A DNA stretch of 45,895 nucleotides from Candidatus Krumholzibacteriia bacterium (GCA_024762975.1 JANTGJ010000012.1:1-45895), one strand, 5' to 3'; shown: positions 10,981-29,128, counted from the first letter of the stretch. Numbers and translations are program-made. The notes: generated by a model not told the origin, from the sequence alone.

Positions 10981-12336
10981 TTACCCCTCCTGGTCGAGGC
11001 GGCCGCCCGCCGATTCGATGATCTCTCGGTACAAATGACCGCTGTCTTTGATCGTTCGTTCCTGCGTTTCGAAGTTCACGCGGATCAGACCCATTCGCTT
11101 GCTGAAGCCGCAGGCCCATTCCAGGTTGTCCAGCAGGGACCAGACGAAGTATCCCCGCAGGTCCACTCCTTGAGCGATCGCTTCACGCGAAGCGCGCAGA
11201 TGTTCGAGTAGATAAGCTGCGCGCCGGTCATCGCGCACACGTCCATCGGAGTCGGGCGCGGGATCGTCGAAGGCGGCCCCATTCTCGGTGATGTAGATCG
11301 CTGGGTTTCCGTACCTCTGTTTCATCCAGACCAGAGTTTGAAGCAGACTCTCCGCCCGGACCTCCCAGCCCAGTTCTGTGTATTCCGCGCCGGGTTGGCG
11401 CACCTGTGCCGCCGGCACGGGGCTGGCCTGCGTTTCAGCTCGGTTCACTGAGCGCGTGTAATAGTTCAAGCCGATGAAATCGAGGGGCTGAGCGATCAGT
11501 GAAAAATCCTCGTCATCAAACCGGGGCCAATTCTCACCGAAGATCTCAGGCATTTCGGTCGGGTAAGAGCCTCGCAGTAGCGGGTCCAGGTATTGCCGAT
11601 TCATGTACGCCTCTGCCAGGCGGGTTGCGTGTAGATCTTCCGGCGTGTCGCTGGCCGCATCCTTGGGCTCGATGTTCACCACGATTCCGATCTGACCGTC
11701 GGACAGGGAGCGGTAGCGCCGGACGGCCTCGCCGTGGGCGCGCAACAGATTGTGGCTGGCCAGAGGCGCCAGCGAAAGGTCCTGCTTCCCGGGGGCATGG
11801 ACGCCGTGCACGTAGCCGGCGTCGACGATGACCCAGGGTTCATTCAGCGTGGTCCAGCGCCCTACTCGATCAGCCAGTCGGCGCCAGACGATCTCGGCGT
11901 AGTCGGCGAACCAGTCCGCGCTGTCGCGATTCGCCCAGCCGCCCTGTTCGTCCAGCTTCGCCGGCAAATCCCAGTGATAGAGAGTAGGCACCGGCTCGAT
12001 GCCGGCGGCGAGCAATCCATCGACCAGGCGCTCGTAGAAATCGAGTCCGTGCTCATTGATGGCACCCGTCCCCTCGGGCTGGATCCGGTTCCAGGCGAGG
12101 CTGAATCGGTAGGCGTTCAATCCGAGCTTCTGCATGTACCCGATGTCCTCGCGCCAGCGCTGATAATGGTCGCAGGCGACATCGCCGGTATCCCCGCCGG
12201 CGATTCGTCCTGGCTGCTGCGAGAAAAGATGCCAATTGCTCGGGCCTGCACCGTCGCTCAACGGCGAACCCTCGATCTGATACGAGGACGTGGCGGCGCC
12301 CCACAGGAAGTCGTTCGGAAAGGAACTGCCGCTCAT
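10981..12336 (-). CDS. GH1 family beta-glucosidase
   Basis: MSGSSFPNDFLWGAATSSYQIEGSPLSDGAGPSNWHLFS; TLNEPWV (acid/base) and YITENGAAFDD (nucleophile); ATG at 12336 overlaps the stop of the upstream GH94 gene (ATGA). The ORF-track start at 12564 is too long. Confidence 0.95.
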   Translation of the reverse strand: MSGSSFPNDFLWGAATSSYQIEGSPLSDGAGPSNWHLFSQQPGRIAGGDTGDVACDHYQRWREDIGYMQKLGLNAYRFSLAWNRIQPEGTGAINEHGLDFYERLVDGLLAAGIEPVPTLYHWDLPAKLDEQGGWANRDSADWFADYAEIVWRRLADRVGRWTTLNEPWVIVDAGYVHGVHAPGKQDLSLAPLASHNLLRAHGEAVRRYRSLSDGQIGIVVNIEPKDAASDTPEDLHATRLAEAYMNRQYLDPLLRGSYPTEMPEIFGENWPRFDDEDFSLIAQPLDFIGLNYYTRSVNRAETQASPVPAAQVRQPGAEYTELGWEVRAESLLQTLVWMKQRYGNPAIYITENGAAFDDPAPDSDGRVRDDRRAAYLLEHLRASREAIAQGVDLRGYFVWSLLDNLEWACGFSKRMGLIRVNFETQERTIKDSGHLYREIIESAGGRLDQEG

Positions 12337-15300
12337 GGTGACTCCTCGGGTCCCAGCGTGATTCGGGCTTGGTGGATGCGTCCGTCGCGCACCAGGGGTA
12401 GGCGCGCTGGTCCATGGGGGGGGGGCAGTACTTGACTGTCCCATTCGATCGAGATCACTCGTGCGGAGCAGAGTTGGGGATTGATGACTTCGATGTCGTA
12501 CCGAGTCTCCGGTCGTGTGCCGACCTCGCGATCGGGAGTCGACAGCAGCCCGGGAACTCGCCATGTGATCGAATAGCTCGGCCAGTCGTCCGGCACGCAG
12601 GGGGCCACGACGAGTTCGTCACCCTCTTGACGCAGGCCGAGGATTGATTCGAGCGCAACGCGGAGCATCCAGCCCGAAGAACCGGTATACCAGGTCCATC
12701 CGCCGCGTCCGATATGGGGCTCGGCGCCGTAGACATCGGCGGCAACGACGTACGGTTCGACCTGATACCGCTCGACGGCTTCGGCATCGCGGGTATGGCG
12801 CACCGGATTGATCATGGTCAGCAATCGTGCTGCGACGTTGCGGCGGCCCAACTCGGCCATGGCACGCACCGCCCAGAGCGCTGCGTGGGTATACTGCCCT
12901 CCATTCTCGCGCACACCGGCCACGTAGCCCTTGATGTAACCCGGGTCATGCGGCGTGTCGATGAATGGCGGCGTCAGCAGTCGGACCAAGCCGTTCTTCT
13001 CGTCGATCAGATGCTTCTGTACGGCATCCATGACCTGGGCTGCTCGCCGTGGTGATGCGGCACCGGACAGGACCGACCAGGACTGTGCCAGGGCATCGAT
13101 GGCGCACTCCTTATTCTCCCACGAACCGAGCGGTGCGCCATTGTCATAGTAACCGCGACGATACCAGTCGCCGTCCCACCCGGTGTCGTTGAGTGTGTGA
13201 ATCATCTCGTCGCGATAGGTGCGGTACCGATCTGCCCGTTCGGATTGTCCACGGTCCAGGCAGAACGGCAGAAAGCCGTCGATGATCTTGACCAGGAAGA
13301 AGCCCATCCACACGCTTTCGCCGCGCCCTTCACGTCCGACGCGGTTCATACCGTCGTTCCAGTCGCCGGTGCCGAATAGCGGCAAGCCGTGAGCGCCGCG
13401 AACCAGGGATCGATCCAGGGCCCGGCAGCAGTGGTCGTACAGGGTGCCGCTCTCGCCGGACGGCTGCGCCTGCAGGAAAACCTCGTCCTGGCCTTCCTCC
13501 AGTTGCGCCGCCGTCAGGTAGGGGCGCACTTCTTCCAGGATCTCCCGGTCGCCAGTGGCAGAGACGTATTCGGCGGTCGCCCATGGGAGCCAGAGCAGGT
13601 CGTCGGCGAAGCGGGTGCGAATTCCGCGGTCCAGCGGTGGATGCCACCAGTGCAATACATCGCCCTCGACGAACTGGTGTCCGGCGTGCAAGAGGATCTG
13701 ATCGCGCACGAGCTTGGGCCACAGTGGCAGTAGCGACAGGGAATCCTGCAATTGATCGCGATAGCCGTAGGCTCCACCCGACTGGTACAAGGCCGATCGC
13801 CCGTGCAAGCGACACGCGAGCGTCTGGTACCCGAGCCAACCGTTGACCATCAGGTCCAATTCGCGGACCGGAGTTTGGATCTGGATTCGGTCCAACTGGT
13901 CACGCCACGTATCGCGTGTCGATCGCCACGCTTCATCGCAGGCGCCGGGGCGAGTGAATTCCTGGATCAGTTCGCAGACCCGGTCGCGATTCTCTTCCGC
14001 AGCCAGCAGAACCCAAAACTCCTGCGTTTGTTGCGGCTCCAACTGGAATTCGGTCTGGAGGGCGAGGCACGGATCGAGGCCCGCACCGGTGCGTCCGTCC
14101 AGAGGACCTGCGTTGGGTGTGCAGTCGATTGGTGTACCGGCGCCGCCGGTGAAGCAGGTCGCGTCGCCGGTGTAGGTGAACGAATTGAGTTTCTGTTCCG
14201 CAACCAGGGTTGCGGCGGCCACCGCACCCTGGAACGGGCTGGTACGGCAACTGCGGGCGAGCAATGCATTGGTGTTGCCATCGAATTCGGTGACGACGTA
14301 GCGTGCGTCGTTGGCGACGGATTCGCCCAGGACGAGTTGGTGGACTGAAATGAGGGATAGATCGCGTCGTTGCTGACCCGGGTTGGTTACCCGGATTCGG
14401 GTCAGACGCACGGGGCGGGTCCGGTCAACACAGGTGAGAGTCTGGACCTCCAGGCCATTACCCTCTCGCTGCCAGCGAGTGTAGCCCTGGCCGTGCCGTA
14501 CCTGGTAGTCACCGCCTCCGGGAGCGGGCCCGGGCTGGCAGGAAAATTGGCCGCCAGTGGTTTCGTCGCGCAGGAACAGTGCCTCGCCGTGCGGGTCGAG
14601 CAATGGATCGTTCGGCCAGGGGGTGAGTCGGTTTTCGCGGCTGTTTCCGAACCAGGTCGTGCCCGCGCCGGTTTCACTGACCAGGCACCCGAATCGGTCG
14701 TTGGCCATCACATTCGTCCACGGGCGCGGCGGCAGGTGCACACCGCAACCGGCGGAAGGCACTTCGATGGCATACTCGCACCCATTCCCAGTGAACCCGC
14801 CCCAACCGTTGTGGAACTCGATCTCATCGCTCAACTTCGGTTCAGTGGTCTTCGTTTCATCCCGCATCTCGATCGGCGCCACGAGGTTGGGGGCCGGCCA
14901 CTGGATCGACTCGAGCGGGTGCTTGCCATCGAGGTACAGATCGGCCGCCAGGCGAAGCAGGTTCCGGTCGCCGGAGGCGAGTCCGCTCAGGCGCACGACG
15001 TTCTGAGCGGGGGCTGCCCCGGAATTCGGACAATCATCGTCGATGATGGTCAACTGGATCGGCAATCCGAGCGACTGCCAGGAACGATGTAGTTTCTCCA
15101 GCAGCGAAACCGCCTCTGGTTCCGCCTCCACCACGACGAGCGGATATCGTCGGTCGATCGCCCATTCGGCCAGTCGTTGCGGATCGAAGGTTCCGACCTC
15201 AAGTTCCGGCATCTGCCGACGCAGGCTTTGCTCACGCCGAAGGACGGCACCGGCGAGTTCTTCGGCCGCTTGCTGCTCATCAACCGAAATTCCGATTCCG

Positions 15301-16199
15301 GCCATGCGTTGCTCGGCGCATGCGCTTGCGCTCCTGAATGCGCGATCGACTTCTTCTGGGCCGGTCAGGGCACTGATGAGTTCGGGAATTTCATCCGGGT
15401 CGGTTGCGGCTCCCAGCAGGAACGTGCAACTGATCAATCCGCCAGGCTTCAGTTCAAAGGCACGCCGCAGCGAAACAACGGGATCGAGGACGTTTCCGAC
15501 CGTTCCGGACAAGGGCTTGGAACCGGTCATGGCCAGCAGATCACCGGGTGCTCGGCCGCGACCGAAGAAGCGGGCTCGGTCCGTTTCGAACTCCACAGGC
15601 CCCGACTCCAGCAGTGAGTGAACAAGTACGGGCGTCAGCTCGTGCGGGGAGCGGGAGCGCCGGCCTACGCAGAGGGTCCGTTGATCCGGCAGCAGCGATG
15701 ATTGGAGGAACAACTTGGAGAATGCGGGGTGGGCGGCGTGGGCCGCCCTTTCATTCAGAACCACCTCGGCCAGCGAGGTGACGTCCAGTCGGCGGGTGCA
15801 GGTGTCCAGATTCCGGATCGTGATCCGGTGAAGTTGTGCCGATCGACCCGGAACAACACAAATTTCCTGCTGGACCCGCAGTTCGCACCCGATCTGTTCG
15901 GAAACGAAGTTGCCCGGCTCCCAGCGCGTGTCGGGAGTCTGGAAATCTCTACTGGTAGCCCTGCCGGCGGGCCACCACAGACTCCGATCCAGATCGCGAA
16001 TGAAGAATCGCAGGCCGGTCGCTGCGGCGCCTTCCCAGCAAGTCAGAGCGAGGTCGCCAGCGGTGGAAAATCCGAGTCCGGAGCCGTCAGTCACAGCGAT
16101 GTAACTTTCTGGATCCGAGCCAATTGAGCTGCTGAGGATGGCGCCATTGGCGGAGGCAGCGCTCCTCAGGGGAAAGGGGTGAAAGGGGGACTTCGTCAT
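12333..16199 (-). CDS. GH94/glycosyltransferase-36 family protein resembling the C-terminal half of cyclic beta-1,2-glucan synthase NdvB; candidate beta-1,2-oligoglucan phosphorylase
   Basis: NdvB-like segments AHPAFSKLFLQSSLLPDQRTL, EFETDRARFFGRGRAPGD, GAYGYRDQLQDSLSLLPLWP, FVEGDVLHWWHPPLDRGIRTRFADDLLWLPWATAEYV, and the GH94 motif GTGDWNDGMNRVGREGRGESVWMGFF; no signal peptide or TM segment, so likely cytoplasmic. Confidence 0.88.
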   Translation of the reverse strand: MTKSPFHPFPLRSAASANGAILSSSIGSDPESYIAVTDGSGLGFSTAGDLALTCWEGAAATGLRFFIRDLDRSLWWPAGRATSRDFQTPDTRWEPGNFVSEQIGCELRVQQEICVVPGRSAQLHRITIRNLDTCTRRLDVTSLAEVVLNERAAHAAHPAFSKLFLQSSLLPDQRTLCVGRRSRSPHELTPVLVHSLLESGPVEFETDRARFFGRGRAPGDLLAMTGSKPLSGTVGNVLDPVVSLRRAFELKPGGLISCTFLLGAATDPDEIPELISALTGPEEVDRAFRSASACAEQRMAGIGISVDEQQAAEELAGAVLRREQSLRRQMPELEVGTFDPQRLAEWAIDRRYPLVVVEAEPEAVSLLEKLHRSWQSLGLPIQLTIIDDDCPNSGAAPAQNVVRLSGLASGDRNLLRLAADLYLDGKHPLESIQWPAPNLVAPIEMRDETKTTEPKLSDEIEFHNGWGGFTGNGCEYAIEVPSAGCGVHLPPRPWTNVMANDRFGCLVSETGAGTTWFGNSRENRLTPWPNDPLLDPHGEALFLRDETTGGQFSCQPGPAPGGGDYQVRHGQGYTRWQREGNGLEVQTLTCVDRTRPVRLTRIRVTNPGQQRRDLSLISVHQLVLGESVANDARYVVTEFDGNTNALLARSCRTSPFQGAVAAATLVAEQKLNSFTYTGDATCFTGGAGTPIDCTPNAGPLDGRTGAGLDPCLALQTEFQLEPQQTQEFWVLLAAEENRDRVCELIQEFTRPGACDEAWRSTRDTWRDQLDRIQIQTPVRELDLMVNGWLGYQTLACRLHGRSALYQSGGAYGYRDQLQDSLSLLPLWPKLVRDQILLHAGHQFVEGDVLHWWHPPLDRGIRTRFADDLLWLPWATAEYVSATGDREILEEVRPYLTAAQLEEGQDEVFLQAQPSGESGTLYDHCCRALDRSLVRGAHGLPLFGTGDWNDGMNRVGREGRGESVWMGFFLVKIIDGFLPFCLDRGQSERADRYRTYRDEMIHTLNDTGWDGDWYRRGYYDNGAPLGSWENKECAIDALAQSWSVLSGAASPRRAAQVMDAVQKHLIDEKNGLVRLLTPPFIDTPHDPGYIKGYVAGVRENGGQYTHAALWAVRAMAELGRRNVAARLLTMINPVRHTRDAEAVERYQVEPYVVAADVYGAEPHIGRGGWTWYTGSSGWMLRVALESILGLRQEGDELVVAPCVPDDWPSYSITWRVPGLLSTPDREVGTRPETRYDIEVINPQLCSARVISIEWDSQVLPPPHGPARLPLVRDGRIHQARITLGPEESP

Positions 16200-16315: not shown

Positions 16316-16329
16316 TGAAACCGTTTACA
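16316..16329. promoter_or_regulatory. Candidate LacI-family operator TGAAACCGTTTACA
   Basis: Matches the LacI-family consensus TGNAANC|GNTTNCA at every fixed position, with central CpG, in the intergenic region between divergent GH94 and lacI-type genes. Confidence 0.65.
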
Positions 16330-16441: not shown

Positions 16442-17476
16442 TTGGCTACGATTCGAGAGGTCGCCCGCGCCGCTGGCGTATCCACCGCAACAGTCTCCCG
16501 GGTGTTCAGCAACAGCCCCCTGGTTAGCGCTGACACCGCGGAACGGGTATTGAAATCGGCCCAGCAATTGGACTATTGGCCCAACAGCGCGGCCCGGAGT
16601 CTGTCGACCCATCGAACCCATACGATCGGGATCATGCTGCCCGATCTGTTCGGCGAATTCTACTCCGACCTCATGCGTGGACTGGATCGTGAGGCGAGCC
16701 TCCACGAGTACCAGATCCTGCTTTCCAGTTCCCATTCCGGTGGGTCGGATGTCCTGGCCGCCAGCCGTGCGATGCTGGGCCGAATCGATGGCCTGATCAT
16801 GTTGGCCCCGGATGAGAAATCGATCGATACGGTGGAGCGCGTTCGGCGCCGCGTACCGGTTGTACTGCTCAACCCACGCCAGCCCGTCGAGGGATGCCAC
16901 TCGGTCGAGGTAGCGAATTACGATGGTGCGCGGCGGGTCGTCGAATACCTGTTGGAGCTGGGCCATCGGGATCTGGCTTTTGTCGCTGGCCCCGAAGGCA
17001 ATGTCGATGCGGAAGAGCGGCGACGCGGATTTCGGGAGTCGCTGCAGGTGGCCGGACTGGACCCGGACCAGGCTCTGGAACTGCCGGGAGATTTCAGGGA
17101 GATCGCGGGCGTCGAAGCCAGCACAGTCATCCTCGCTCGCCATCCGAGACCCACGGTGGTGTTCGCCGCCAACGATGCGATGGCCATTGGGCTTCAGTCG
17201 GCGTTGCACCGCGCGGGGTGCCGTGTTCCGCAGGATATTTCAGTCGTGGGTTTCGACAATGTAGCCATGGCCGGCTACCTGAATCCACCATTGACCACGG
17301 TCAACGTGGATGCCTGCGGGCTGGGCCGCGAAGCGGTCCGCATGATGTTGGACGTCCTGCGTGCGAGCGAAGAATCGGCGCAGATCCGGAGGGTCATTCC
17401 GGCCGCTTTGAAGATCCGCGAGTCGTGTAGCGCAGTAGAGGCACTGCGCGCCGGCCACAAATCGAATTCGAACTAG
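16442..17476 (+). CDS. LacI family transcriptional regulator (TTG start)
   Basis: MATIREVARAAGVSTATVSRVFSNSPLVSADTAERVLKSAQQLDYWPNSAARSLSTHRTHTIGIMLPDLFGEFY: LacI HTH plus periplasmic-binding-like effector domain. Confidence 0.95.
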   Translation: MATIREVARAAGVSTATVSRVFSNSPLVSADTAERVLKSAQQLDYWPNSAARSLSTHRTHTIGIMLPDLFGEFYSDLMRGLDREASLHEYQILLSSSHSGGSDVLAASRAMLGRIDGLIMLAPDEKSIDTVERVRRRVPVVLLNPRQPVEGCHSVEVANYDGARRVVEYLLELGHRDLAFVAGPEGNVDAEERRRGFRESLQVAGLDPDQALELPGDFREIAGVEASTVILARHPRPTVVFAANDAMAIGLQSALHRAGCRVPQDISVVGFDNVAMAGYLNPPLTTVNVDACGLGREAVRMMLDVLRASEESAQIRRVIPAALKIRESCSAVEALRAGHKSNSN

Positions 17477-17496: not shown

Positions 17497-19395
17497 GTGA
17501 CAGCCATGAAGACGACGATCACGATCATGACACTGCTGCTGTGGGCGGCCTGCACCCTGGTAGTCCCAGCCGGGGCCCAGGACGCGCGCGAAGATGCGAT
17601 TTGGGCCCGAACGGCGCTGGCGCCGATTGTGCTGGATGGTGTACTGGACGAACCGGGGTGGGCGGTCGCCGACTCCCAGATCATCGAGTACGGGATCGAC
17701 TCCGGGATGCCGGGCAGCGGATGGAAGACCGAGGCCGGTTGGCAGCCCATCGATCCGACCCACGCGACCATAAAATTCCTGGTGCATGGGAATCAACTCT
17801 ATATGGCAGCTATCGTCCAGGACGAGTCGATTGGCGGCAGTATCGAATTCAATCGCTTCGATGGGCTGCTGATGGGTATGAAGGACCACTCGGTGGAAGG
17901 CTATCCCAAGCCCCAGTCCGAGTACATGTACACCTGGTGGCACGACGAACTGACCGATCCGCAGCCTGAAGGAACCATGCCGGGCTTCATCGGCTCCTGG
18001 GCTGAACTGCCCCACGGCTCGCCGCGCACTCCGGAACAGATCGCGGCCTGGGATGCGGTCACGGTCGTTGATGGCACGACCAACAATGACGATGTGCCTG
18101 ACAATGGATACACGATCGAAATGCGTTTCGACCTGGATGTGATGGGCTACGATGTGACGCAGGTCGACGGTGACATTGTCGAGTGGAACATCTCGGTGTA
18201 CGACTGCGATTGGTATTGGCCGATCAGCGTCACCAGCTTCAGCGCGAACCGCGTCTGGTGGCAGGGCCCGTGGGGAAACACGTCCTGGTACAGCGAAGTG
18301 CGCATCCACGCGCGGCCCGATGTGACGACGGCCAGCGGCCCGGCACCGCAGATTGCTGCCGAACTGGTGGTTCCCTCGATCAACGAAGCGCCCGTCATCG
18401 ACGGCACGCTGGACGAGGGCGCCTGGAGTTCCCCGAATATCTACAGCTTCGACATCCGCTGGGGGGACGATGCGCTGCGCGAGTCCTATGATGGCATCGG
18501 CGCCTACCGGTCCGGCCAGTTCCAGGCGACAGTCAACGGCGGTGAAGCCTTCGTGCTCGATCCGGCCGATGCGACGGTGAAGGTCTTCCACGACGGCGAC
18601 ATGCTCTACATGGGCTTTGAAGCCCGCGATCAGGTGGTGCAGTACCACCCCAGCCTGGACCGTTGGGATGGGTTCATCGTGACGATGGAGGACCGTGCGA
18701 ATCTCGGCTCGGACAACACCCTTCTGGTCAAACGTCTCTCCTTCCAGGTCGACGCCGACGGCAGCGCCCTGCCTCAGGACGATCTTTTGAGTCTGGTGAC
18801 GACCAATGACGCGGAAGTCGCGGTTTCGCTGATGGCAGGAACCACTGTCGATACGCTCGGCCAGCAGTCGGACACAGGCTACACGGCAGAGATGGCGATT
18901 GATCTGAAAGCCCTCGGCTATCCGGCCGGACTGGGCGATGGCGCGATCTTCTTCGGTGTCGTCCACCTGGACGGCGACTCCTTCATTCCGACTTCCGATA
19001 GCTATGGCACCCGTACCTGGTGGTACCGGGAGTTCCCGGGCACCTGCTGCCCGGTTTGGGGCTACTTGCAGCCGGGGGCATCGGCGGTTGGCGGACCGAT
19101 CGTTGGGTTGAGTGAATACGGTCGCCTGTTGGGCTCGAGTTCGCCTTCGTCGCGCCCCTACATCCGTTTCGCGATGCCGGATCAGAATCTGGTGGCGTTG
19201 CAGGTCTACGATGTGCGCGGCCGCCTGATCGAGCGCCACTCGTTCGGATCCATGGACGAAGGAGAGAATCGTGTGCCCCTGTTCGCGGTGAAGCGCCCGG
19301 CAGCGGGCATCTACCTGTACCGCCTACAGCTGCTCGACCCGGTGACGGGAATCGAGCGGGCCGTGATGACCGGCAAGTCGGTCCTGGTGAGATAA
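17497..19395 (+). CDS. Secreted protein with two CBM9-like (DOMON-type) domains and a C-terminal FlgD/T9SS-like sorting domain
   Basis: Repeated unit: 'APIVLDGVLDEPGWAVAD...ATIKFLVHGNQLYMAAIVQDES' and 'APVIDGTLDEGAWSSPN...ATVKVFHDGDMLYMGFEARDQ'; C-term 'VALQVYDVRGRLIERHSFGSMDEGENRVPLFAVKRPAAGIYLYRLQ'. Likely start ATG 17497 or 17506 (MKTTITIM). Confidence 0.8.
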   Translation: MTAMKTTITIMTLLLWAACTLVVPAGAQDAREDAIWARTALAPIVLDGVLDEPGWAVADSQIIEYGIDSGMPGSGWKTEAGWQPIDPTHATIKFLVHGNQLYMAAIVQDESIGGSIEFNRFDGLLMGMKDHSVEGYPKPQSEYMYTWWHDELTDPQPEGTMPGFIGSWAELPHGSPRTPEQIAAWDAVTVVDGTTNNDDVPDNGYTIEMRFDLDVMGYDVTQVDGDIVEWNISVYDCDWYWPISVTSFSANRVWWQGPWGNTSWYSEVRIHARPDVTTASGPAPQIAAELVVPSINEAPVIDGTLDEGAWSSPNIYSFDIRWGDDALRESYDGIGAYRSGQFQATVNGGEAFVLDPADATVKVFHDGDMLYMGFEARDQVVQYHPSLDRWDGFIVTMEDRANLGSDNTLLVKRLSFQVDADGSALPQDDLLSLVTTNDAEVAVSLMAGTTVDTLGQQSDTGYTAEMAIDLKALGYPAGLGDGAIFFGVVHLDGDSFIPTSDSYGTRTWWYREFPGTCCPVWGYLQPGASAVGGPIVGLSEYGRLLGSSSPSSRPYIRFAMPDQNLVALQVYDVRGRLIERHSFGSMDEGENRVPLFAVKRPAAGIYLYRLQLLDPVTGIERAVMTGKSVLVR

Positions 19396-19484
19396 ATACG
19401 GATGAGGTTCGGGTGGGCTCCATCGATGAGCCCACCGCTGGGAACGAGGATTCCAGACCGGAGGCAAGGACCCTGGTACCGCAA

Positions 19485-22124
19485 ATGAGAAAACCGCTGG
19501 CCGCCTGGTCGCTCGGGTGCCTGCTGATCGCGTGCCTGCTACCGTGTTTCGCCTGGGCGGGGACGACCGGGACCATTGTCGGCCGCGTGACCGATTCGCT
19601 CGGGCTTCCGGTACCGGGAGCGACGGTCGAGGTTGTCGATACGCGATTCGCGGCCACGAGCGATATGAACGGCGGCTTCGTTCTCCTGAATATCCCCTCC
19701 GGTACATACGCGGTCCGCGCCGGCGCCGCAGGCTATCAGCCCTATTTGATGGAAGAAGTGATCGTTTCAGCGGACCGCAGCACGACGATCGAGCTGGAGA
19801 TCGGCGACCCTTCCCTGGAAGTCGAAGAGGTCGTCGTCGTCGCCAAGCGGTCGCCCGTGGACCTGAAGATCACCAGTTCGCAATCCACCCTGACGGCCGA
19901 GGAGATTGCGGATCTCCCGGTGCAAAGCCTGGAGGACGTCGTCAATCTGCAAGCCGGCGTGGTGGATGGACACTTTCGCGGCGGACGCAAGGGCGAGGTG
20001 CAGTACCAGGTGGACGGCGTGAGTGTGAACAACGCGTTCGACAACACGTCCAGCCTGTCGATCGACCGCTCGCTGCTGCAGGAAGTCCAGGTGATCAGTG
20101 GCACCTTCGATGCCGAGTATGGCCAGGCGATGAGCGGTGTGGTCAACGCCGTCCTCAAGCAGGGCAGCGAGGAACTGGAGGCGGACGCCGAGATCTATAC
20201 CGGTGGGTTCTTGTTTCCCGGTCGCCAGGAGGCCCGGCGTACGGACGACGATACTCCTCATCTGACCGGAACCCAGAGCTATCAGGTTTCGCTCGGCGGG
20301 CCGCTGGTGCTGCCTTCGACGCGTTTCCTTTTCAGTGGCCGCTACTACAGTTTCGATGACTACGTCTATGCCGAGCGTCGATATCTACCGACGGACCTGG
20401 CAGACTCGACCGGCAGCGTTGTCGGTACCGGCGATGGAGAAGAGTTCGCGCTCGGTTATTCGCGGGAATGGTCGGGAGTCGCAAAGCTGTCCAATAGTAC
20501 GTTCGAGAGCGCCCAGCTCAGCTATCAGATGATCTTCAACACCCGCGAAAGCCGGCCGAATTCCTACGCGTATCGCTACCTGCCCGATGGACTCTCAATC
20601 CAGCGCGCGATGTCGATCTCGCATGGGTTGGACTGGAGCCAGGTCCTCGGCGACGAGACGTTCCTGGATTTCAGCTTCCGCCACAACTACTACCGCTATC
20701 GTGACTACCTGTACGAGGATCCGTACGATTCGCGCTACGACGATCCGCTGCAGTTGAACAACACGGGTACCAACGGCGACTATTTCTTCCAGGGTGTCCA
20801 GACGAACCACTACCGGCAGACGACGAACACGATGATCTACAAGGGTTCGATCGTCAGTCAACTCAACCTCGAAAATCAGGTCAAGACGGGTTTCGAGGTC
20901 AGCTTGCCGCGCGTCGAGTTCGGCAACGATATGTATTTCACCTACGGCGAGGGACAGTTGGTGCGGCACATCAACGAGCCGCCCGATTACCCTGGTCCGC
21001 TGACACGGCATCCGGTCATGGGTGCGGCCTATGTGCAGAACCAATTCGAGAACGAGGACCTGATCGTGCGCCTGGGTGCCCGCATGGACTACTTCGATGC
21101 GCGCTCGACCGTTCCCGGCGATCTGGCCAATCCGGCGAACGCGATCGAGGGCGCCCCCGAATCGCTGCCGGTCGATACAACCGCCAAGACATCGGTTTCT
21201 CCGCGGCTGGGAGTTGCTTTTCCCGTGAACGAGAGTGCAGCGATCCACGTGGCCTACGGCCACTTCCGCCAGTTCCCCTCGGTCTCGACGATGTTCACCA
21301 ACTCGGACTACGATATTCTTGAGCGCCTGCAGGCCGGAACCGTTTCGTACGGTGTGATGGGCAACCCCGATCTGGCTCCCGAGACCACGGTTCAGTACGA
21401 GTTGGGCTACAAGCAGGCGATCAGCTCGGACCTGGGTTTCGAATTGACGGTCTATTACAAGGACATTCGCGATCTGCTGGGCGTCGAGTTCATCTCGACC
21501 TACACCGGCGCCGAGTATACGCGACTGACGAACGTGGACTTCGGCAGCGCCACGGGCGCGACCCTGGCGATCGATCACCGCGCGGTGGGCCCGTTCAGTG
21601 TGTCGCTGGATTACACTTGGCAGCAGGCCCTGGGCAATGCCAGTGACCCGAGCGAGACCGCGAACCGGGCGGCGGCGGGCGAGGACCCGCGTCCGCGCCT
21701 GGTGCCTTTCGAGTGGGATCAGCGGCACACCGTGAATCTCGCCACATCAATCTACCGCCCGGGCAACTATCGGGCCTCCGTGGTGGCCAAGGTTGCCAGC
21801 GGAATGCGCTACACACCCACGACCGAGAACGCCTTCGGATTCGGATCCTCCACGAACTCGGGCCGCAAGCCGGCGGCTTTCCTGGTCGACCTGCGTGCCG
21901 AAAAATTCTTCGGCGAGAGCGGACGCACCGGGCTCTTCCTGCGTGTGTTCAATCTTTTCGATACCCGGTACTTCAATGGCCCGGTCTACGCGACGACGGG
22001 CAGTCCGTACTACGCTCGCAATCCGAGCCCGGGCGAACTGGTCAGCCTGAATAATCCGACCCTGTTGTATTCGCCGCGGCGTGTCGAGTTCGGCATGCGC
22101 TGGGGATGGGGAGGGGGTTGGTGA
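19485..22124 (+). CDS. TonB-dependent receptor with N-terminal carboxypeptidase-regulatory-like domain
   Basis: GTIVGRVTDSLGLPVPGATVEVVDT...; plug domain ITSSQSTLTAEEIADLPVQSLEDVVNLQAGVVDGHFRGG...YQVDGVSVNN; C-terminal barrel ending FGMRWGWGGGW. ORF track starts at GTG 19413; ATG 19485 begins the signal peptide. Confidence 0.92.
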   Translation: MRKPLAAWSLGCLLIACLLPCFAWAGTTGTIVGRVTDSLGLPVPGATVEVVDTRFAATSDMNGGFVLLNIPSGTYAVRAGAAGYQPYLMEEVIVSADRSTTIELEIGDPSLEVEEVVVVAKRSPVDLKITSSQSTLTAEEIADLPVQSLEDVVNLQAGVVDGHFRGGRKGEVQYQVDGVSVNNAFDNTSSLSIDRSLLQEVQVISGTFDAEYGQAMSGVVNAVLKQGSEELEADAEIYTGGFLFPGRQEARRTDDDTPHLTGTQSYQVSLGGPLVLPSTRFLFSGRYYSFDDYVYAERRYLPTDLADSTGSVVGTGDGEEFALGYSREWSGVAKLSNSTFESAQLSYQMIFNTRESRPNSYAYRYLPDGLSIQRAMSISHGLDWSQVLGDETFLDFSFRHNYYRYRDYLYEDPYDSRYDDPLQLNNTGTNGDYFFQGVQTNHYRQTTNTMIYKGSIVSQLNLENQVKTGFEVSLPRVEFGNDMYFTYGEGQLVRHINEPPDYPGPLTRHPVMGAAYVQNQFENEDLIVRLGARMDYFDARSTVPGDLANPANAIEGAPESLPVDTTAKTSVSPRLGVAFPVNESAAIHVAYGHFRQFPSVSTMFTNSDYDILERLQAGTVSYGVMGNPDLAPETTVQYELGYKQAISSDLGFELTVYYKDIRDLLGVEFISTYTGAEYTRLTNVDFGSATGATLAIDHRAVGPFSVSLDYTWQQALGNASDPSETANRAAAGEDPRPRLVPFEWDQRHTVNLATSIYRPGNYRASVVAKVASGMRYTPTTENAFGFGSSTNSGRKPAAFLVDLRAEKFFGESGRTGLFLRVFNLFDTRYFNGPVYATTGSPYYARNPSPGELVSLNNPTLLYSPRRVEFGMRWGWGGGW

Positions 22125-25100
22125 TGGATCGGAATCACACCTGCACGAGGAGAGCCCGAAACGTGTCGAATTGCGAAAGGCCAACGAACCGGGGTCGAGG
22201 AATCACCTGGATCAGTCTGGGGTTGGTGGCCGCATTGATTCTGCCGGCTGCGGTGGCGATCGGCGATGTCATCACCCCGGTGCCCCAGGATCAGCGGGGT
22301 CGCGAGGATGCCGAGCGCGCGGGGCAGCACGATGCGAACAACATGCGAACCCTGTTCTGGAATTACGGAATGGTCGGCGACTATCCGCGCGATCCGGGGA
22401 ATGTCGATCTGAGTGTATTCCACTCCGTCGAGGTGCCCAAGGGCAGCGGCATGAACTACGGCGACGGGGTTACGCCCTTCGTGCTGGCCAAGATCACGCA
22501 GGTCGATGGGTCCGAGGCCTACATCATGGAGACGGGTTTCCGTGAGAGGCAGGGAACGAGTCCGTATTTCAATCGAGTCATGCGTTTTGAGCCACGTCCG
22601 GGCTATTTTCAGCCCGATCCGGCTCTGAATCCTGGCCGGTCGCCTGCGATGAGCAACGATCCCCGCACCTGGCCCGACTACTGGCCCGACCGCCTGGACG
22701 ATCCGAGCGATCCGGGCTGGAGTGGCTCGTGGAACGGCTACTTCGGCAAACAGATCGTGGCCGACCAGGAAAGCTACGTGGTCCTGGACGATGACTACTA
22801 CGATGCGTGGAATTTCTATCCGGACAGTCGCGACTCGACGCGCAACGGGTTGGGTTTGCGAATCGAGGTGCGCGGGTTCCAGTGGGCCAATCCGCAGGCC
22901 CGCAACGTGATCTTCTGGCACTATGATATCACCAACGAGGGTACGACCGACTACGACGACAATATCGTATTCGGTCTGTATATGGATTCGGGTGTGGGCG
23001 GTTCGGCTTTTTCATGCGATCAGATCTACGAATCGGACGACGACAACGCCTACTTCGCCCGTGAGTTCGATGGGCAGCCGATCAACCTGGTCTATACCTG
23101 GGACAATGGCGGGCACGGAAGAGACCTTTCCGGTTCCTGCTCGACCACCGGCTACCTCGGCTATGCGTACATGGAAACTCCGGGCAAGCCGACCGACGGC
23201 CTGGACAACGATGAGGACGGCATCGTTGATGAGCGACGCGATGGCGGCCCGGGCACTTTCCTGGTCGGGATGGACAACATCCGCGCCTACGTCGAGTCGA
23301 ATTACGACATGACCCGCTTCGAGTCGGTCTACGGTCCCCTGGAAGACATGCCTGCCTACCGCGCTGAACTGTGGTGGACAGGAGATGAGGACCTGGATTG
23401 GACGATCGATAACCACGACGTAGGTGCCGACGGTTTGGCCGATACCGGAGACGAGGGCGAGGGCGACGGCATTCCGACGGCGGGCGAGCCGAACTTCGAC
23501 GATACCGACCTGAATGAGTCCGACCAGATCGGCCTGACGGGTTTCAAGATGAATCGGATCCTGCCGGGCTATGGCAACCCGGATCAGACCACGGACAACA
23601 TCGTTTTCTTCACCGGAAACGAGAATTGGCCCGAAAAGCTGTACGAACAGTTCTCCGATCCTGATCCGAACGAGCGTTTCGACGAGCCACTGGCCAACAA
23701 CTACAACATCGGATTCCTCTTCGCCTCCGGACCGTTCCGCCTGGCCGCGGGCCAAACTGAACGATTCAGCCTGGCCTTGGCCTACGGTGCGGATCTGACC
23801 GAACTGGCCAATAACACGCGCACCGTCCAGCAGATCTACAACGCGAACTATCGCTTCGCGACCCCGCCGAAGACGCCGACACTGACCGCCGAGACGGGTG
23901 ACGGATTTGTCCAGTTGTCCTGGGACGACGTTGCCGAAAACGGCGCCGATCCCGTCACCGGCGAGTTCGATTTCGAGGGCTACCGAATCTACCGTTCGAC
24001 GGATCCGGATTTTCGGGATCCCCAGGTGATCACCACGGGGACAGGCAGCGGCCCCTTGGGCAACGGAAAGCCAATCGCTCAGTTTGATCTCAAGAACGGC
24101 GTCAGCGGCTTCTCGGATCTGAGCATCGAGGGTGTGTCCTACTACCTGGGTACCGACTCGGGGCTGACCCATACCTGGACCGACAACACCGTGACCAACG
24201 GACAGGCCTATTACTACGCGGTCACAGCCTATGATCGTGGATCCGAGGCCTTCAATTTCTACCCATCCGAGAACGCGATCACCCCTTCGAGGACAGCCCG
24301 CGGCGGGCTCGTGCTTCCATCGAATGTGGTCGAGGTCCGCCCGAACCCGAAGGTACAGGGTTTCGTCGCGGCGACGACCGATACGGCGGCCCACGTGTCG
24401 GGAGTCGGCAGCGGCTCGGTCGGGATTCAGGTCGTCAATTCGAGCCTGGTTCCGGACGACCACCTGTTCCGGTTGACGTTCGAAACCCCGTCGCCGGACA
24501 GCCTGCGTGCGCGGTCCTATGCGTTGACCGATGCGACGACGAACGAGATCCTGTTCGAAACGGGGTTGGATTTCCTGGGCGAAGGCATCGGACCGGTGGG
24601 CTCGGGTTTGTTGCCGGTCGTCCGCACGGCAACCGAGGTCCAGGTCGATCCCGAGACCACCGGATTCCTTTCCGGCAGTTTGACGGACGCGATTTTCCTG
24701 GTGAGTTACGAGTCGAGCGTCTTGCCCATCAACCGCCTGCGGCCCGGTTTCCCCGAGGACATTACGATCTTCTTCTCGGACGACGTCGAGTCCACTTCGA
24801 TCGCCTCGGGAATCCAATTTCCGACGCCGATGCCGGCCCGCTTCGAGATCATCATGCACACCGACGAAGGCGACGTCCCGCTGGATTTCCTGTTCCGCGA
24901 TCGCGCCGACTCGGGTGAGGATCCGGACGGCACGCTCAGCCGAACCGACGAACTGATTCGCATCGTGACCTATCTGCCAGAGAGTCCGGACGTGCCGCAG
25001 GGCACCTGGACGATTGCGTTGGCCCAAGAATCTGCGAATCCGCCGGCCGCCGGCGATGCCTGGCGACTGAGCTTGAAGCGACCTTTCGGATCCGACGATG

Positions 25101-25465
25101 TCTTCGAGTTCGCAACCCGTGGCGAGTACGTCGATCAGGACGCGGCTCGGGCCGGTTTCGAGCCCTACGTCGTGCCCAATCCCTACCTGGGATCGGCCAG
25201 CTTCGAGCCGGAGCGTTATGCGGTGTCCGGACGCGGCGAAAGGCGCATCGAGTTCCGCGGACTTCCAGCCAGCTGCGAGATTCGCATCTTCAATGTCCTG
25301 GGCGAACTGGTGCAGACTCTCCGCCACGATGGCGGAACTGATGGATTTGTGGCCTGGGATCTTAGGACGAAGGACCTGCTCGATGTCGCGCCGGGCCTGT
25401 ACATCTTCCATGTCGACGGCGGACCGGCGGGTAAGGCCACCGGCAAGTTCGCCATCGTGAAATGA
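22124..25465 (+). CDS. Large secreted protein with fibronectin type III-like domain and C-terminal FlgD/T9SS-like sorting domain
   Basis: Signal sequence ISLGLVAALILPAAVAIGD; FN3-like 'PKTPTLTAETGDGFVQLSWDDVAENGADPVTGEFDFEGYRIYRSTDPDF...YYYAVTAYDRG'; C-term 'PYVVPNPYLGSASF...CEIRIFNVLGELVQTLRHDGGTDGFVAWDLRTKDLLDVAPGLYIFHVDGG'. ATG 22124 overlaps the upstream stop (TGATG). Confidence 0.85.
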   Translation: MDRNHTCTRRARNVSNCERPTNRGRGITWISLGLVAALILPAAVAIGDVITPVPQDQRGREDAERAGQHDANNMRTLFWNYGMVGDYPRDPGNVDLSVFHSVEVPKGSGMNYGDGVTPFVLAKITQVDGSEAYIMETGFRERQGTSPYFNRVMRFEPRPGYFQPDPALNPGRSPAMSNDPRTWPDYWPDRLDDPSDPGWSGSWNGYFGKQIVADQESYVVLDDDYYDAWNFYPDSRDSTRNGLGLRIEVRGFQWANPQARNVIFWHYDITNEGTTDYDDNIVFGLYMDSGVGGSAFSCDQIYESDDDNAYFAREFDGQPINLVYTWDNGGHGRDLSGSCSTTGYLGYAYMETPGKPTDGLDNDEDGIVDERRDGGPGTFLVGMDNIRAYVESNYDMTRFESVYGPLEDMPAYRAELWWTGDEDLDWTIDNHDVGADGLADTGDEGEGDGIPTAGEPNFDDTDLNESDQIGLTGFKMNRILPGYGNPDQTTDNIVFFTGNENWPEKLYEQFSDPDPNERFDEPLANNYNIGFLFASGPFRLAAGQTERFSLALAYGADLTELANNTRTVQQIYNANYRFATPPKTPTLTAETGDGFVQLSWDDVAENGADPVTGEFDFEGYRIYRSTDPDFRDPQVITTGTGSGPLGNGKPIAQFDLKNGVSGFSDLSIEGVSYYLGTDSGLTHTWTDNTVTNGQAYYYAVTAYDRGSEAFNFYPSENAITPSRTARGGLVLPSNVVEVRPNPKVQGFVAATTDTAAHVSGVGSGSVGIQVVNSSLVPDDHLFRLTFETPSPDSLRARSYALTDATTNEILFETGLDFLGEGIGPVGSGLLPVVRTATEVQVDPETTGFLSGSLTDAIFLVSYESSVLPINRLRPGFPEDITIFFSDDVESTSIASGIQFPTPMPARFEIIMHTDEGDVPLDFLFRDRADSGEDPDGTLSRTDELIRIVTYLPESPDVPQGTWTIALAQESANPPAAGDAWRLSLKRPFGSDDVFEFATRGEYVDQDAARAGFEPYVVPNPYLGSASFEPERYAVSGRGERRIEFRGLPASCEIRIFNVLGELVQTLRHDGGTDGFVAWDLRTKDLLDVAPGLYIFHVDGGPAGKATGKFAIVK

Positions 25466-26499
25466 GGGGCGCGCCAATCAAGATGAATAAGACGGCACTG
25501 GCAGCACTGATCGTATTCGTACTTGGCTGGAGCGCCACGGAGGGGCTGGCCCAGAGTAAGGTCGGAACGACGATCGGCACCTTTCTGCGAATCGAGCCCA
25601 GCGCCCGGGGCGCCGCGGTCGGCAACGCAGGCTCGGCGATGACCGGGTCGATCGAATCGGCATACTACAATGTGGGAGCGGTGGGGCTGCTGGAAGCACC
25701 CGCGGTTCAGTACACCCACAGCATGTGGTTCGCCGATATCAGTTACGACTACGCGGCGTTTGCGGTTCCGGCCGGTGAATCGGGAAACGTGTTTTTCAGC
25801 GTGACGGCTCTCGGATCGGGCGACATCCAGGTGCGAACGGTCGAGCAACCGCTGGGCACGGGAGTGAACTACAGCGTAACGGATGTCGCACTGGGATTTG
25901 CCTACGGACGGAGGATCACCGAACGCTTCAGCGCCGGACTGCAGGCCAACTACATCACCGAGAAGATCTGGAACACGTCCAGCCAGACCATGACGCTGAA
26001 TCTGGGGACGGTCTATCGTCTGACCGGCAACGGCGCCACGATCGGCTTCAGCCTGTCGAATCTGGGCACGCGCGGAAAGTTCTCGGGCTCGGACCTGGGA
26101 ATTCAATTCGACGCCGATTCCGATTCCTACGGCGACAACAGTGCCTTGCCGGCCGAACAGTCCACGGACGAGTTTCCGCTGCCCGGTCTCTTTCGCCTGG
26201 GAGTGAGCATCCCGTATTCGTTGGGCGAGCAGAATCGGCTGCTGGTGTTGCTCGAGGGACTGCACCCGAACGACAACAGCGAAAGTATGAATGTTGGATT
26301 GGAATGGACCCTGCGCGAAATGTTTTCCCTCAGGGGAGGCTACCAGACGCTTTTCCAGGAGGAAACCGAGTTGGGGCTGACCGCTGGATTTGGTGTGGTT
26401 GGCGGACTCGGCGAGCGCAGTTACGAATTGAATTACGCCTGGGCGGCGCACGAGTCACTGGAATCGACCCATCGTCTGACGATGGTCATCGGGTTCTGA
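25462..26499 (+). CDS. PorV/PorQ family outer-membrane protein
   Basis: 'SKVGTTIGTFLRIEPSARGAAVGNAGSAMTGSIESAYYNVGAVGLLEAPAVQYTHSMWFADISYDYAAFAVPAG' is the PorV-type N-terminal signature; barrel-like C-term ending in F. Start 25462 (ATGA overlap) or 25483. Confidence 0.82.
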   Translation: MRGAPIKMNKTALAALIVFVLGWSATEGLAQSKVGTTIGTFLRIEPSARGAAVGNAGSAMTGSIESAYYNVGAVGLLEAPAVQYTHSMWFADISYDYAAFAVPAGESGNVFFSVTALGSGDIQVRTVEQPLGTGVNYSVTDVALGFAYGRRITERFSAGLQANYITEKIWNTSSQTMTLNLGTVYRLTGNGATIGFSLSNLGTRGKFSGSDLGIQFDADSDSYGDNSALPAEQSTDEFPLPGLFRLGVSIPYSLGEQNRLLVLLEGLHPNDNSESMNVGLEWTLREMFSLRGGYQTLFQEETELGLTAGFGVVGGLGERSYELNYAWAAHESLESTHRLTMVIGF

Positions 26500-26545
26500 G
26501 ACAATGGACCCGCGGAGAACGTGGAAGTCGGAGTGGAGAGATACG

Positions 26546-28222
26546 ATGAAGGCACAACACGACACGACGACGAATTTCCGGCGCGGTCGGGCGCTGCTGG
26601 CCCTGCTGGCTCTGGCCCTGCTGTGTGGCCTGGGTGTCCAGGGATCCGAACTGACGGCACGGGCGGAGGCTTCGCCGCTTCTCCCCTCTGCTTTCTCCGC
26701 GGAGAAGTCCCTGACGAATGAGGCGCTGCTGGACAGCCTGCAACGTACCGGTTTCGAGTACTTCTGGGAACAGGTCAATCCGGTGAATGGGCTGATCCGG
26801 GACCGGAGCGCGGCTTGGTCTCCGTGCAGTATCGCGGCCCAGGGATTCGGGATCACCGCCATTTGTATCGCGATCGATCACGGTTGGGTACCGCGGGAAG
26901 AGGGGCGCGACCGCATCCTGCTGGGAATGCAGACGCTGTGGAACGGCCCCCAGGGGGATACCGGGAACAACACGAACGGCTACAAAGGATTGTTCTACCA
27001 CTTCCTGGACATGAATTCCGGCCTGCGGGTCTGGGATAGTGAGCTCTCCTCCATCGATACAGCGCTGCTGATGGCCGGGGTGTTGGACGCGAAACAGTAT
27101 TTTGATACCGAGGAAGCAGGGGATGCGGAGTTGCGCGCCCTGGCGGACTCGCTCTACCTGCGTGTCGACTGGGAGTTCATGCGCAACGGCGGCAATGGAA
27201 TCCGTATGGGCTGGAAACCGGGAACCGGCTTCTCCGGATTCGGCAACTGGATTGGCTACAACGAGGCGATGATCATGTATGTCCTGGCGCTGGGTTCCCC
27301 GACCCACCCGGTGCCCTGGTACACGTGGCCGTATTGGACCAGCGGCTACAACTGGAGCACCCAGTACGGTCAGACCTACCTTGTCTTTCCGCCGCTCTTT
27401 GGTCACCAGTACTCGCACTGTTGGATCGATTTCCGGGAGATCCAGGACGACTACATGCGATTGCGCGGCATCACCTATCACGAGAATTCGCGGAGGGCGA
27501 CGATCGCAGCGCGCGAGTACTGCATCGACAACCCCTACGGGTGGGCAGGGTATGGCGAGAACCTGTGGGGCTTGACCGCTTCGGACGATCCCGATGGATA
27601 CGCGGCACACGGAGCGCCGCCGGCCCAAAGCGACAACGGCACGATCACGCCCACGGCTGCGGCCAGTTCGATCGTGTTTGCCCCGGAGATCGTATTGCCC
27701 GCGTTGCAGTACATGTACGACAACTACGCGGGCTTGATTTGGGGGCCCTATGGGTTCAAGGACGCATTCAATCTGACCCGGTTCTGGGTCGCCAGCGATT
27801 ATCTGGGCATCGATCAGGGGCCCATCGTCGCGATGATCGAAAACTACCAGAACGAGGGGGTCTGGTCGCGGTTCATGCAGGATCCCTACGTACAGGCTGG
27901 ATTGCGGGGCGCGGGTTTCGGCTCTCTCGCTCCGGTGCAGCAGGAGTCCGGAGTATTGGAGATCGTCCAGCTGGGGCAGAACCGGCCCAATCCGTTCGGG
28001 AAATCGACCACGATTTCGTATCGCGTTGCCGAGCCTGGCCCTGTCACTTTGCGCCTCTACGATTTACGGGGTCGGAAGGTGCGTGAGGTCAGTGGGAACG
28101 CGAAGGACCAAAACACGCAGCATATCACCTTGGATGCGAGGGATCTCGCCAGCGGAGTCTATACGTATTCCCTCGAGGCGAATGGAAAGAAGGTTCAGAA
28201 GCGATGCATCATCATCAAATAG
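26546..28222 (+). CDS. Second glycoamylase-like protein (PF10091; GH144-like) with C-terminal FlgD/T9SS-like sorting domain
   Basis: LLDSLQRTGFEYFWEQVNPVNGLIRDRS...GYKGLFYHFLDMNSGLRVWDSELSSIDTALLMAGVL...GYNEAMIMYVLALGSPTHPVP...FPPLFGHQYSHCWIDFREIQDDYMR...WGLTASDDPDGY...YLGIDQGPIVAMIENYQ; C-term NRPNPFGKSTTISYRVAEPGPVTLRLYDLRGRKVREVSG...LASGVYTYSLEANGKKVQKRCIIIK. Confidence 0.88.
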   Translation: MKAQHDTTTNFRRGRALLALLALALLCGLGVQGSELTARAEASPLLPSAFSAEKSLTNEALLDSLQRTGFEYFWEQVNPVNGLIRDRSAAWSPCSIAAQGFGITAICIAIDHGWVPREEGRDRILLGMQTLWNGPQGDTGNNTNGYKGLFYHFLDMNSGLRVWDSELSSIDTALLMAGVLDAKQYFDTEEAGDAELRALADSLYLRVDWEFMRNGGNGIRMGWKPGTGFSGFGNWIGYNEAMIMYVLALGSPTHPVPWYTWPYWTSGYNWSTQYGQTYLVFPPLFGHQYSHCWIDFREIQDDYMRLRGITYHENSRRATIAAREYCIDNPYGWAGYGENLWGLTASDDPDGYAAHGAPPAQSDNGTITPTAAASSIVFAPEIVLPALQYMYDNYAGLIWGPYGFKDAFNLTRFWVASDYLGIDQGPIVAMIENYQNEGVWSRFMQDPYVQAGLRGAGFGSLAPVQQESGVLEIVQLGQNRPNPFGKSTTISYRVAEPGPVTLRLYDLRGRKVREVSGNAKDQNTQHITLDARDLASGVYTYSLEANGKKVQKRCIIIK

Positions 28223-28327: not shown

Positions 28328-29128
28328 ATGAAGAAGCTGAACAGAATCGCCATTTTGTGTGCTATGGTCTTGTTGATCGTCGGCATGACGACCAGCGCAC
28401 TGGCTACGCTCGAGCCGAGCGATGCCGTGGTCATCGAGCGCGTATTCAACGATTCATTCGCGTCGATCCTGACGGTCGACAATAGCTTCCCGTCGATGAT
28501 CGCGATCGACGACGAAGCCGCCGGCCCGCTGGGCTGGGCCAATCTGCACATCTGGCGTTTCGCCAGTGGCGGTTCGTCGCCGCAGGAGTTCGCGAACGAG
28601 GACGGCTTCCGTTTCGGCGCCGACCTGACGATTACCGGCAGCGGTGACGGCGAAGCCGGCCTTTCGGTCGCCCCGTGGTGGTCCGGAAATGTCGACGGCC
28701 GTTTCAACGTCCGTACGCCGGACGGTGAAGTCGCAGTCTTTGGCGGTCGTCTGCCGTTCTACTCGTTCACGGCCAACAACGGCGTCACCTATGTCGAGGG
28801 CACGACCGTTCACCTGGAAGTCATCTACCGGACGAATTCGGAGATGAACGAAGCCAACCCGGCCACGATCGAGTATATCTACGATGGTATCAGCAGTGGC
28901 CCGTTGGCCTTCGACGAGGGTAATCCTGCCGAGGCCGACCCGCACGGTACGTGGGGCCTGCTTTCCCCGTGGTATGCTGGCGGATACATGCAGTACAACA
29001 ACATGTCGTCGTTCGGCGAGGGCGCGAACTTCCACGTCGAGTGGGAGGGTATCACTGTCGAGGATCTGGGCTCGGTCGTTGCGACGGATAACGAGTCCTG
29101 GGACGGCGTGAAGGCTCTGTTCCACTAG
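28328..29128 (+). CDS. Secreted protein of unknown function
   Basis: Strong signal peptide MKKLNRIAILCAMVLLIVGMTTSALA; SD AGGAG at about 28317; no family recognised. Confidence 0.8.
   Translation: MKKLNRIAILCAMVLLIVGMTTSALATLEPSDAVVIERVFNDSFASILTVDNSFPSMIAIDDEAAGPLGWANLHIWRFASGGSSPQEFANEDGFRFGADLTITGSGDGEAGLSVAPWWSGNVDGRFNVRTPDGEVAVFGGRLPFYSFTANNGVTYVEGTTVHLEVIYRTNSEMNEANPATIEYIYDGISSGPLAFDEGNPAEADPHGTWGLLSPWYAGGYMQYNNMSSFGEGANFHVEWEGITVEDLGSVVATDNESWDGVKALFH

What the first reader, a model, noticed from the sequence alone, without database searches (positions are those of the whole stretch)
17497..28222. SusD-less surface module: tandem CBM9-like protein, TonB receptor, 1.1-kaa FN3 protein, PorV, sorted glycoamylase
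Five consecutive same-strand genes encode secreted or outer-membrane products, several with overlapping stops/starts. There is no SusD-like gene. The CBM9-like protein and the large FN3 protein occupy the positions where a ligand-capturing lipoprotein would be expected, so they may act as a non-homologous SusD replacement.
Basis: partly seen in the sequence, partly recalled or inferred. Interest (0 to 1): 0.6.

Follow-up and report, generated by a model that had tools for sequence, protein, structure and literature searches.

The report
SusD-free sugar-uptake module with PorV anchor
This is a gene cluster for eating beta-1,2-glucan whose outer-membrane uptake machine lacks the usual SusD capture protein and instead always carries an uncharacterised 1,100-residue surface protein between the transporter and a dedicated PorV-like barrel, a three-gene arrangement conserved across several bacterial phyla.

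Summary
The five genes are real. The locus is a LacI-controlled beta-1,2-glucan utilisation locus: the "glycoamylase" is a GH144 endo-beta-1,2-glucanase type, and the flanks carry a second GH144, a GH94 phosphorylase, a GH1 and a sophoro-oligosaccharide-type ABC transporter. SusD is absent from the genome and from all 78 sampled genomes of its phylum, so "SusD-less" is phylum-wide. The stronger result is the order TonB receptor - FN3 protein - PorV-like barrel. It holds in essentially every sufficiently long locus of two deep clades (clade A: receptor 34/36, PorV 44/44; clade B: 32/32 and 33/33), in MAGs labelled as at least five phylum-level groups. Clade A always sits with GH144/GH94; clade B never does and sits with other glycan genes. 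The FN3 protein is the most conserved product of clade-A loci. Its N-domain is predicted to be a super-beta-sandwich, the fold shared by carbohydrate-active enzymes, not a SusD fold. Its C-terminal domain is far more conserved than ordinary T9SS tails. Best reading: a T9SS-displayed capture protein/lid held by a dedicated PorV-like barrel, doing SusD's job. Complex formation and glycan binding are untested. The CBM9 protein looks like an accessory binder, not the SusD substitute.

The parts
16316..16329 (.). LacI-family operator TGAAACCGTTTACA between the divergent GH94 and LacI genes
   Evidence: Only two places in the window match TGWAANCGNTTNCA; 0.02 matches expected by shuffling. A match lies within 400 nt upstream of LacI in 18 of 23 related loci with a LacI gene.
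16442..17476 (+). LacI-family regulator, about 20 nt before the CBM9-like gene
   Evidence: Pfam LacI + Peripla_BP_3; junction; in 14/17 well-flanked clade A loci
17497..19395 (+). Tandem CBM9-like secreted protein with T9SS-type C-terminal tail; putative accessory glycan binder
   Evidence: CBM9_1 35.2 bits; internal tandem; tail matches GH144b T9SS tails by hhalign, probability 99.9
19413..22124 (+). TonB-dependent receptor with CarboxypepD_reg N-domain (true start may be ATG 19485); not in the SusC/RagA subfamily
   Evidence: Pfam; TIGR04056 59 bits vs cutoff 368
22106..25465 (+). 'FN3 protein': signal peptide, predicted super-beta-sandwich N-domain (about 62-585), FN3 (about 586-715), beta-rich middle (716-1015), highly conserved T9SS-like C-terminal domain (1020-1119); candidate SusD-function protein
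   Evidence: Models with pLDDT 87 and 86; fold search; conservation; synteny; no Pfam family
25462..26499 (+). PorV/PorQ-family outer-membrane barrel dedicated to the module; candidate anchor of the FN3 protein
   Evidence: NF033709 160 bits vs cutoff 90; NF033710 (true T9SS PorV) 61 vs cutoff 250; only PDB match is PorV
26504..28222 (+). GH144-type endo-beta-1,2-glucanase with T9SS type A tail
   Evidence: PF10091 279 bits + Por_Secre_tail; best PDB match XcSGL 8xul; clan residues E254, F299, Y366 present
28328..29128 (+). Secreted 266-aa protein of unknown family, recurrent at this position
   Evidence: No Pfam or NCBIfam; in 9/17 well-flanked clade A loci
12333..16199 (-). [quoted passage not shown]
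   Evidence: Pfam; 773 bits to 8rf9
10981..12564 (-). GH1 beta-glucosidase, divergent operon
   Evidence: Pfam GH1 513 bits
2664..4181 (+). Second GH144-type protein, N-terminus with lipobox VAGC
   Evidence: PF10091; 8xul 543 bits
2852..2865 (.). Second LacI-type operator match, inside the second GH144 reading frame
   Evidence: role uncertain
4007..7190 (+). ABC transporter: solute-binding protein and two permeases
   Evidence: Pfam; binding protein 255 bits to Lin1841, the sophoro-oligosaccharide-binding protein

Best explanation
This is a LacI-regulated beta-1,2-glucan utilisation locus with a SusD-independent outer-membrane uptake module. Inferred sequence of events: the T9SS-sorted GH144 cuts beta-1,2-glucan at the surface; the CBM9-like protein helps collect it; the FN3 protein, exported by the T9SS, sits at the mouth of the TonB receptor as a capture protein or lid through its super-beta-sandwich N-domain, while its C-terminal domain stays docked on the PorV-like barrel encoded next to it, so a protein anchor replaces SusD's lipid anchor; the receptor imports the oligosaccharides; the second GH144, the ABC transporter, GH94 and GH1 finish the job. 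Shown: gene content, synteny, conservation, fold prediction, operator, absence of SusD. Inferred: secretion through the T9SS, the receptor-FN3-PorV complex, glycan binding by the N-domain, and lid function. Split confidence: beta-1,2-glucan locus 0.9; receptor-FN3-PorV as one functional unit 0.9; FN3 protein as PorV-held SusD-function protein 0.5.
For: Substrate: GH144, GH94 and ABC binding-protein assignments and LacI operators; the published Ignavibacterium album beta-1,2-glucanase cluster has two GH144, a CGS-type GH94, an ABC transporter and a TonB transporter (PMC8861115). Unit: the triplet is present in essentially all testable loci of both clades, with overlapping or near-touching genes, and receptor, FN3 and PorV trees all contain the same A/B split with distance correlations of 0.92-0.97 (support for the split is only 0.42 in the FN3 tree). 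FN3 role: most conserved protein in every clade A comparison, e.g. 32/32 against the receptor and 25/25 against the glucanase; all 23 PDB fold matches of the N-domain at E<0.001 are carbohydrate-active enzymes. Anchor: C-terminal domain 72% mean pairwise identity against 38% and 37% for the GH144 and CBM9 tails in the same 20 loci; related to T9SS tails; SprA present; no lipobox-like motif in 62 of 71 FN3 N-termini by a loose pattern. Precedents: type B CTD proteins anchored by PorP-like barrels (PMC9143113); BtuG as a non-SusD lid (PMC10404256).
Against: No complex could be modelled (single-chain prediction only) and no binding is measured. Fold matches have low TM-scores (about 0.35). Domain-wise distance coupling fits C-terminal domain with PorV and middle domain with receptor, but bootstrap support is only 0.86-0.95 and the N-domain is ambiguous. 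Related C-terminal domains occur in own-genome proteins, one of which (C54) has no receptor or PorV neighbour detected. SusD-bearing genomes may also carry the module (13/48), so it is not simply a substitute in SusD-free lineages.
Confidence: 0.55

Rival explanations
1. FN3 protein and PorV-like barrel form a dedicated T9SS export or display pair: the barrel collects the FN3 protein (and perhaps the glucanase and CBM9 protein) from the translocon, and the FN3 protein is a surface scaffold that does not cap the receptor.
For: PorV collects type A cargo from the translocon (PMC9143113); three neighbouring products carry T9SS-like tails.
Against: The receptor is as tightly linked to FN3 and PorV as they are to each other, and receptor-PorV distance coupling is the strongest of all.
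Confidence: 0.25
2. The FN3 protein is a surface enzyme acting on glycan, not a binder.
For: The N-domain fold matches come from glycan-active enzymes, and the mutarotase-like protein 3k25 also appears.
Against: In GH94 and GH116 relatives the super-sandwich is the non-catalytic domain (family knowledge) and the model has no (alpha/alpha)6 barrel; the same core occurs beside GH16, GH130 and GH144 loci, so one linkage chemistry is unlikely.
Confidence: 0.08
3. Co-regulated operon members without physical contact; conservation reflects transfer of the locus as one block.
For: The same locus in MAGs of several phyla with FN3 identity of 53-80% suggests horizontal transfer of a block.
Against: Clade B keeps only the three-gene core while enzymes, CBM protein and regulator change, which block transfer alone does not explain.
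Confidence: 0.12

Closest known systems
SusC/SusD glycan importers of Bacteroidota PULs
   Same: TonB-dependent receptor plus surface partner, surface GH, extra glycan binder, regulator
   Different: No SusD; receptor outside the SusC/RagA subfamily; partner is a T9SS-tailed super-beta-sandwich/FN3 protein with a PorV-like barrel; LacI regulator and ABC transporter
Ignavibacterium album beta-1,2-glucanase (SGL) gene cluster, IALB_1177-1187 (PMC8861115)
   Same: GH144 pair, CGS-type GH94, ABC transporter, TonB transporter; clade A Ignavibacteria loci show the same gene set
   Different: The passages read mention a TonB transporter only; no FN3 or PorV partner is described there
BtuB-BtuG vitamin B12 importers (PMC10404256)
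   Same: A non-SusD surface protein acts as the lid of a TonB receptor
   Different: BtuG is a lipid-anchored beta-propeller for B12; FN3 protein is unrelated and appears PorV-anchored
Type B CTD protein / PorP-like anchor pairs, e.g. SprB-SprF (PMC9143113)
   Same: T9SS cargo with neighbouring FadL-family barrel that anchors it
   Different: Here PorV/PorQ family, variant type-A-like tail, coupled to a TonB receptor
Cytophaga hutchinsonii chu_1276-1280 atypical cellulose PUL (PMC12016534)
   Same: TonB-like receptor cluster without SusD, with surface glycan binder
   Different: Found in cellulolytic Bacteroidetes for cellulose; its binder is SGBP-B-like

Membership tests
SusCD-type PUL | SusD homologue next to the receptor | tested here: not met
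   PF07980 absent in the genome and in 78 phylum genomes
SusCD-type PUL | Receptor of SusC/RagA subfamily (TIGR04056 above cutoff) | tested here: not met
   59 bits vs cutoff 368
Glycan utilisation locus (functional sense) | Surface glycanase, OM receptor, regulator and downstream catabolic enzymes in one regulated locus | tested here: met
GH144 beta-1,2-glucanase | PF10091 fold family and the E, F, Y clan residues | tested here: met
   26504-28222: E254, F299, Y366 align with E239, F286, Y367 of XcSGL; in the second GH144 E and F match, Y unresolved
T9SS PorV (NF033710 equivalog) | Score above equivalog cutoff | tested here: not met
   61 vs cutoff 250
PorV/PorQ family (NF033709) | Score above subfamily cutoff | tested here: met
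   160 vs cutoff 90
T9SS type A cargo (FN3 protein) | Tail recognised by PF18962 or TIGR04183 | tested here: inconclusive
   No hit, but profile comparison with genuine tails gives probability 96.7
SusD function (capture lid) | Binds glycan and caps the receptor | not testable with these tools
   No multimer prediction or binding assay available

The most novel reading that the evidence does not exclude
A multi-phylum class of glycan importers in which a TonB receptor, a T9SS-exported super-beta-sandwich/FN3 capture protein and a dedicated PorV-like barrel form one complex: a protein-anchored functional equivalent of SusCD, reused with different enzymes for different glycans.
Probability: 0.45. 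Interest if true: 0.78.

Novelty: new variant of a known kind. Interest (0 to 1): 0.62.

Why it matters
SusCD is the textbook way that Bacteroidota import glycans, and related phyla without SusD have had no described equivalent in the papers found here; one survey reports that susCD genes are scarcely found in Ignavibacteriales gene clusters (PMC10576277). A conserved three-gene core that swaps enzymes between substrates would let such loci be found by search, give a role to part of the many PorV-family paralogues, and open a second, protein-anchored design of receptor lid to direct structural test.

Tried and rejected
CBM9-like protein as the SusD substitute: set aside because no homologue was recognised in clade B. 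"SusD-less" as a local oddity: rejected, phylum-wide absence. "Glycoamylase" or starch reading: rejected in favour of GH144. Whole-chain fold search: dominated by FN3 repeats, so the N-domain was modelled alone. PDB sequence search with the FN3 profile: nothing. Distance-coupling test for domain partners: suggestive only. Lipobox scan with a loose pattern: 9/71 scattered matches, not followed. Literature searches for a described receptor-FN3-PorV module found none, but the library lacks most subscription papers and preprints.

Full report
WHAT IS THERE. The five genes exist at the stated coordinates, on one strand, with a TGATG overlap between receptor and FN3 gene and an ATGA overlap between FN3 and PorV genes. 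Gene 1 is a tandem CBM9-like protein (Pfam CBM9_1 in the second half; the halves match each other at E 7e-12) with a T9SS-type tail. Gene 2 is a TonB-dependent receptor outside the SusC/RagA subfamily (59 bits against a cutoff of 368). Gene 3 has no Pfam hit and nothing above cutoff in NCBIfam. Gene 4 is in the PorV/PorQ family but fails the T9SS PorV equivalog; its only PDB match is PorV. Gene 5 is a PF10091 protein with a T9SS type A tail.

WHAT THE LOCUS DOES. Both PF10091 proteins of the genome lie in this window. Both match XcSGL (8xul) best, which is a characterised GH144 beta-1,2-glucanase (PMC12102758), and gene 5 keeps the three clan residues E, F and Y. [quoted passage not shown] The ABC binding protein matches Lin1841, the sophoro-oligosaccharide binder, at 255 bits. 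A GH1 beta-glucosidase and LacI regulator complete the set. A perfect LacI-type operator lies in the divergent promoter and a second inside the other GH144 gene; 0.02 matches are expected by chance. The operator is found upstream of LacI in 18 of 23 related loci that hold a LacI gene. The substrate is therefore most likely beta-1,2-glucan.

SYNTENY TEST. FN3-protein relatives fall in two sets: clade A (53-80% identity over the aligned region) and clade B (35-40%). They come from MAGs labelled Krumholzibacteriota, Eisenbacteria, KSB1, Latescibacterota, Ignavibacteria/Bacteroidota, Neomarinimicrobiota and others; MAG labels can be wrong. Only the best 80 of 150 loci were kept. In clade A the receptor is upstream in 34/36 loci with enough flank, and the two misses (taken to be L040 and L123) are artefacts of over-long open frames, since both loci hold the receptor; PorV is downstream in 44/44. 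In clade B the figures are 32/32 and 33/33. GH144 or GH94 is present in 25/25 clade A loci with over 7 kb downstream and in 0/26 of clade B. Clade B loci carry GH16, GH130 or GDE_C/MGH1-like genes, often ABC transporters and LacI, and a T9SS-tailed protein upstream of the receptor that in several cases has CBM9 or CBM4_9. So the constant core is receptor, FN3 protein, PorV; the rest changes with the substrate. Trees of the three proteins all contain the same A/B split, with patristic correlations of 0.92-0.97, although the split has only 0.42 support in the FN3 tree. A lone exception is a truncated, apparently decaying copy in G075. The window's own genome has a second triplet on contig C32 and a variant on C85.

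SUSD. PF07980 is absent from this genome and from 78 phylum genomes. Of 48 module-bearing genomes reached through named loci, 13 have one to three SusD genes; the two best hits were checked and do not overlap the module loci. The module thus occurs both without and with SusD.

THE FN3 PROTEIN. It is the most conserved product of clade A loci: higher identity to the window than the receptor in 32/32 loci, PorV in 35/35, CBM9 protein in 30/30, glucanase in 25/25. AlphaFold2 models are confident (pLDDT 87 full, 86 N-domain). The N-domain search returns 23 PDB matches at E<0.001, all carbohydrate-active enzymes, mostly of the GH94/GH116 super-beta-sandwich type, with TM-scores near 0.35; no SusD structure is among the 50 listed. 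The C-terminal domain is related to T9SS tails (probability 96.7) but is 72% identical on average among 20 loci in which the GH144 and CBM9 tails are 38% and 37% identical. A disposable sorting signal would not need that constraint; a permanent docking surface would. In a rank-based partial-distance test the C-terminal domain leans to PorV (bootstrap 0.91 and 0.87 in clades A and B) and the middle domain to the receptor (0.86 and 0.95), while the N-domain is undecided. This is suggestive, not significant.

MECHANISM. Inference from these facts and published precedents: T9SS exports the FN3 protein (SprA is present; no lipobox-like motif in most homologues); its tail stays on the neighbouring PorV-like barrel as type B cargo stays on PorP-like barrels (PMC9143113); its N-domain captures glycan over the receptor as SusD or BtuG does (PMC10404256). 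The steps of complex formation, binding and lid motion are not shown.

NOVELTY. The beta-1,2-glucan gene set in Ignavibacteria is published. No paper found in the open library describes the receptor-FN3-PorV core. It is filed as a new variant of TonB-dependent glycan uptake, not as a member of the SusCD family, because two defining SusCD features were tested and not met.

Noticed in passing
window 2852-2865: A perfect LacI-type palindrome lies inside the reading frame of the second GH144 gene, about 190 nt after the listed ORF start; possible auxiliary operator or roadblock.
   Followed up: no
window 28328-29128: Secreted 266-aa protein without Pfam or NCBIfam match recurs after the glucanase in clade A loci and is duplicated in some (L126, L128).
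   Followed up: partly
window 7187-10279: 1030-aa protein with F5/8 C domain and GDE_C-like region, also found beside GH1 in several Eisenbacteria loci (L045, L052, L053).
   Followed up: partly
L010 (G000 contig C85) 7400-15972: Variant module in the same genome: FN3-like protein, a putative lipoprotein, receptor, PorV-like barrel and a further putative lipoprotein, with touching or overlapping ORFs.
   Followed up: partly
L131 (G075) about 7970-10268: Truncated receptor and FN3 gene with an internal stop and no detectable PorV: apparently a decaying copy.
   Followed up: partly
FN3 protein residues 366-376 (window about 23201-23233): Invariant Asp-rich, EF-hand-like loops (DGLDNDEDGIVDE) in the FN3 protein N-domain, possibly calcium sites.
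   Followed up: no
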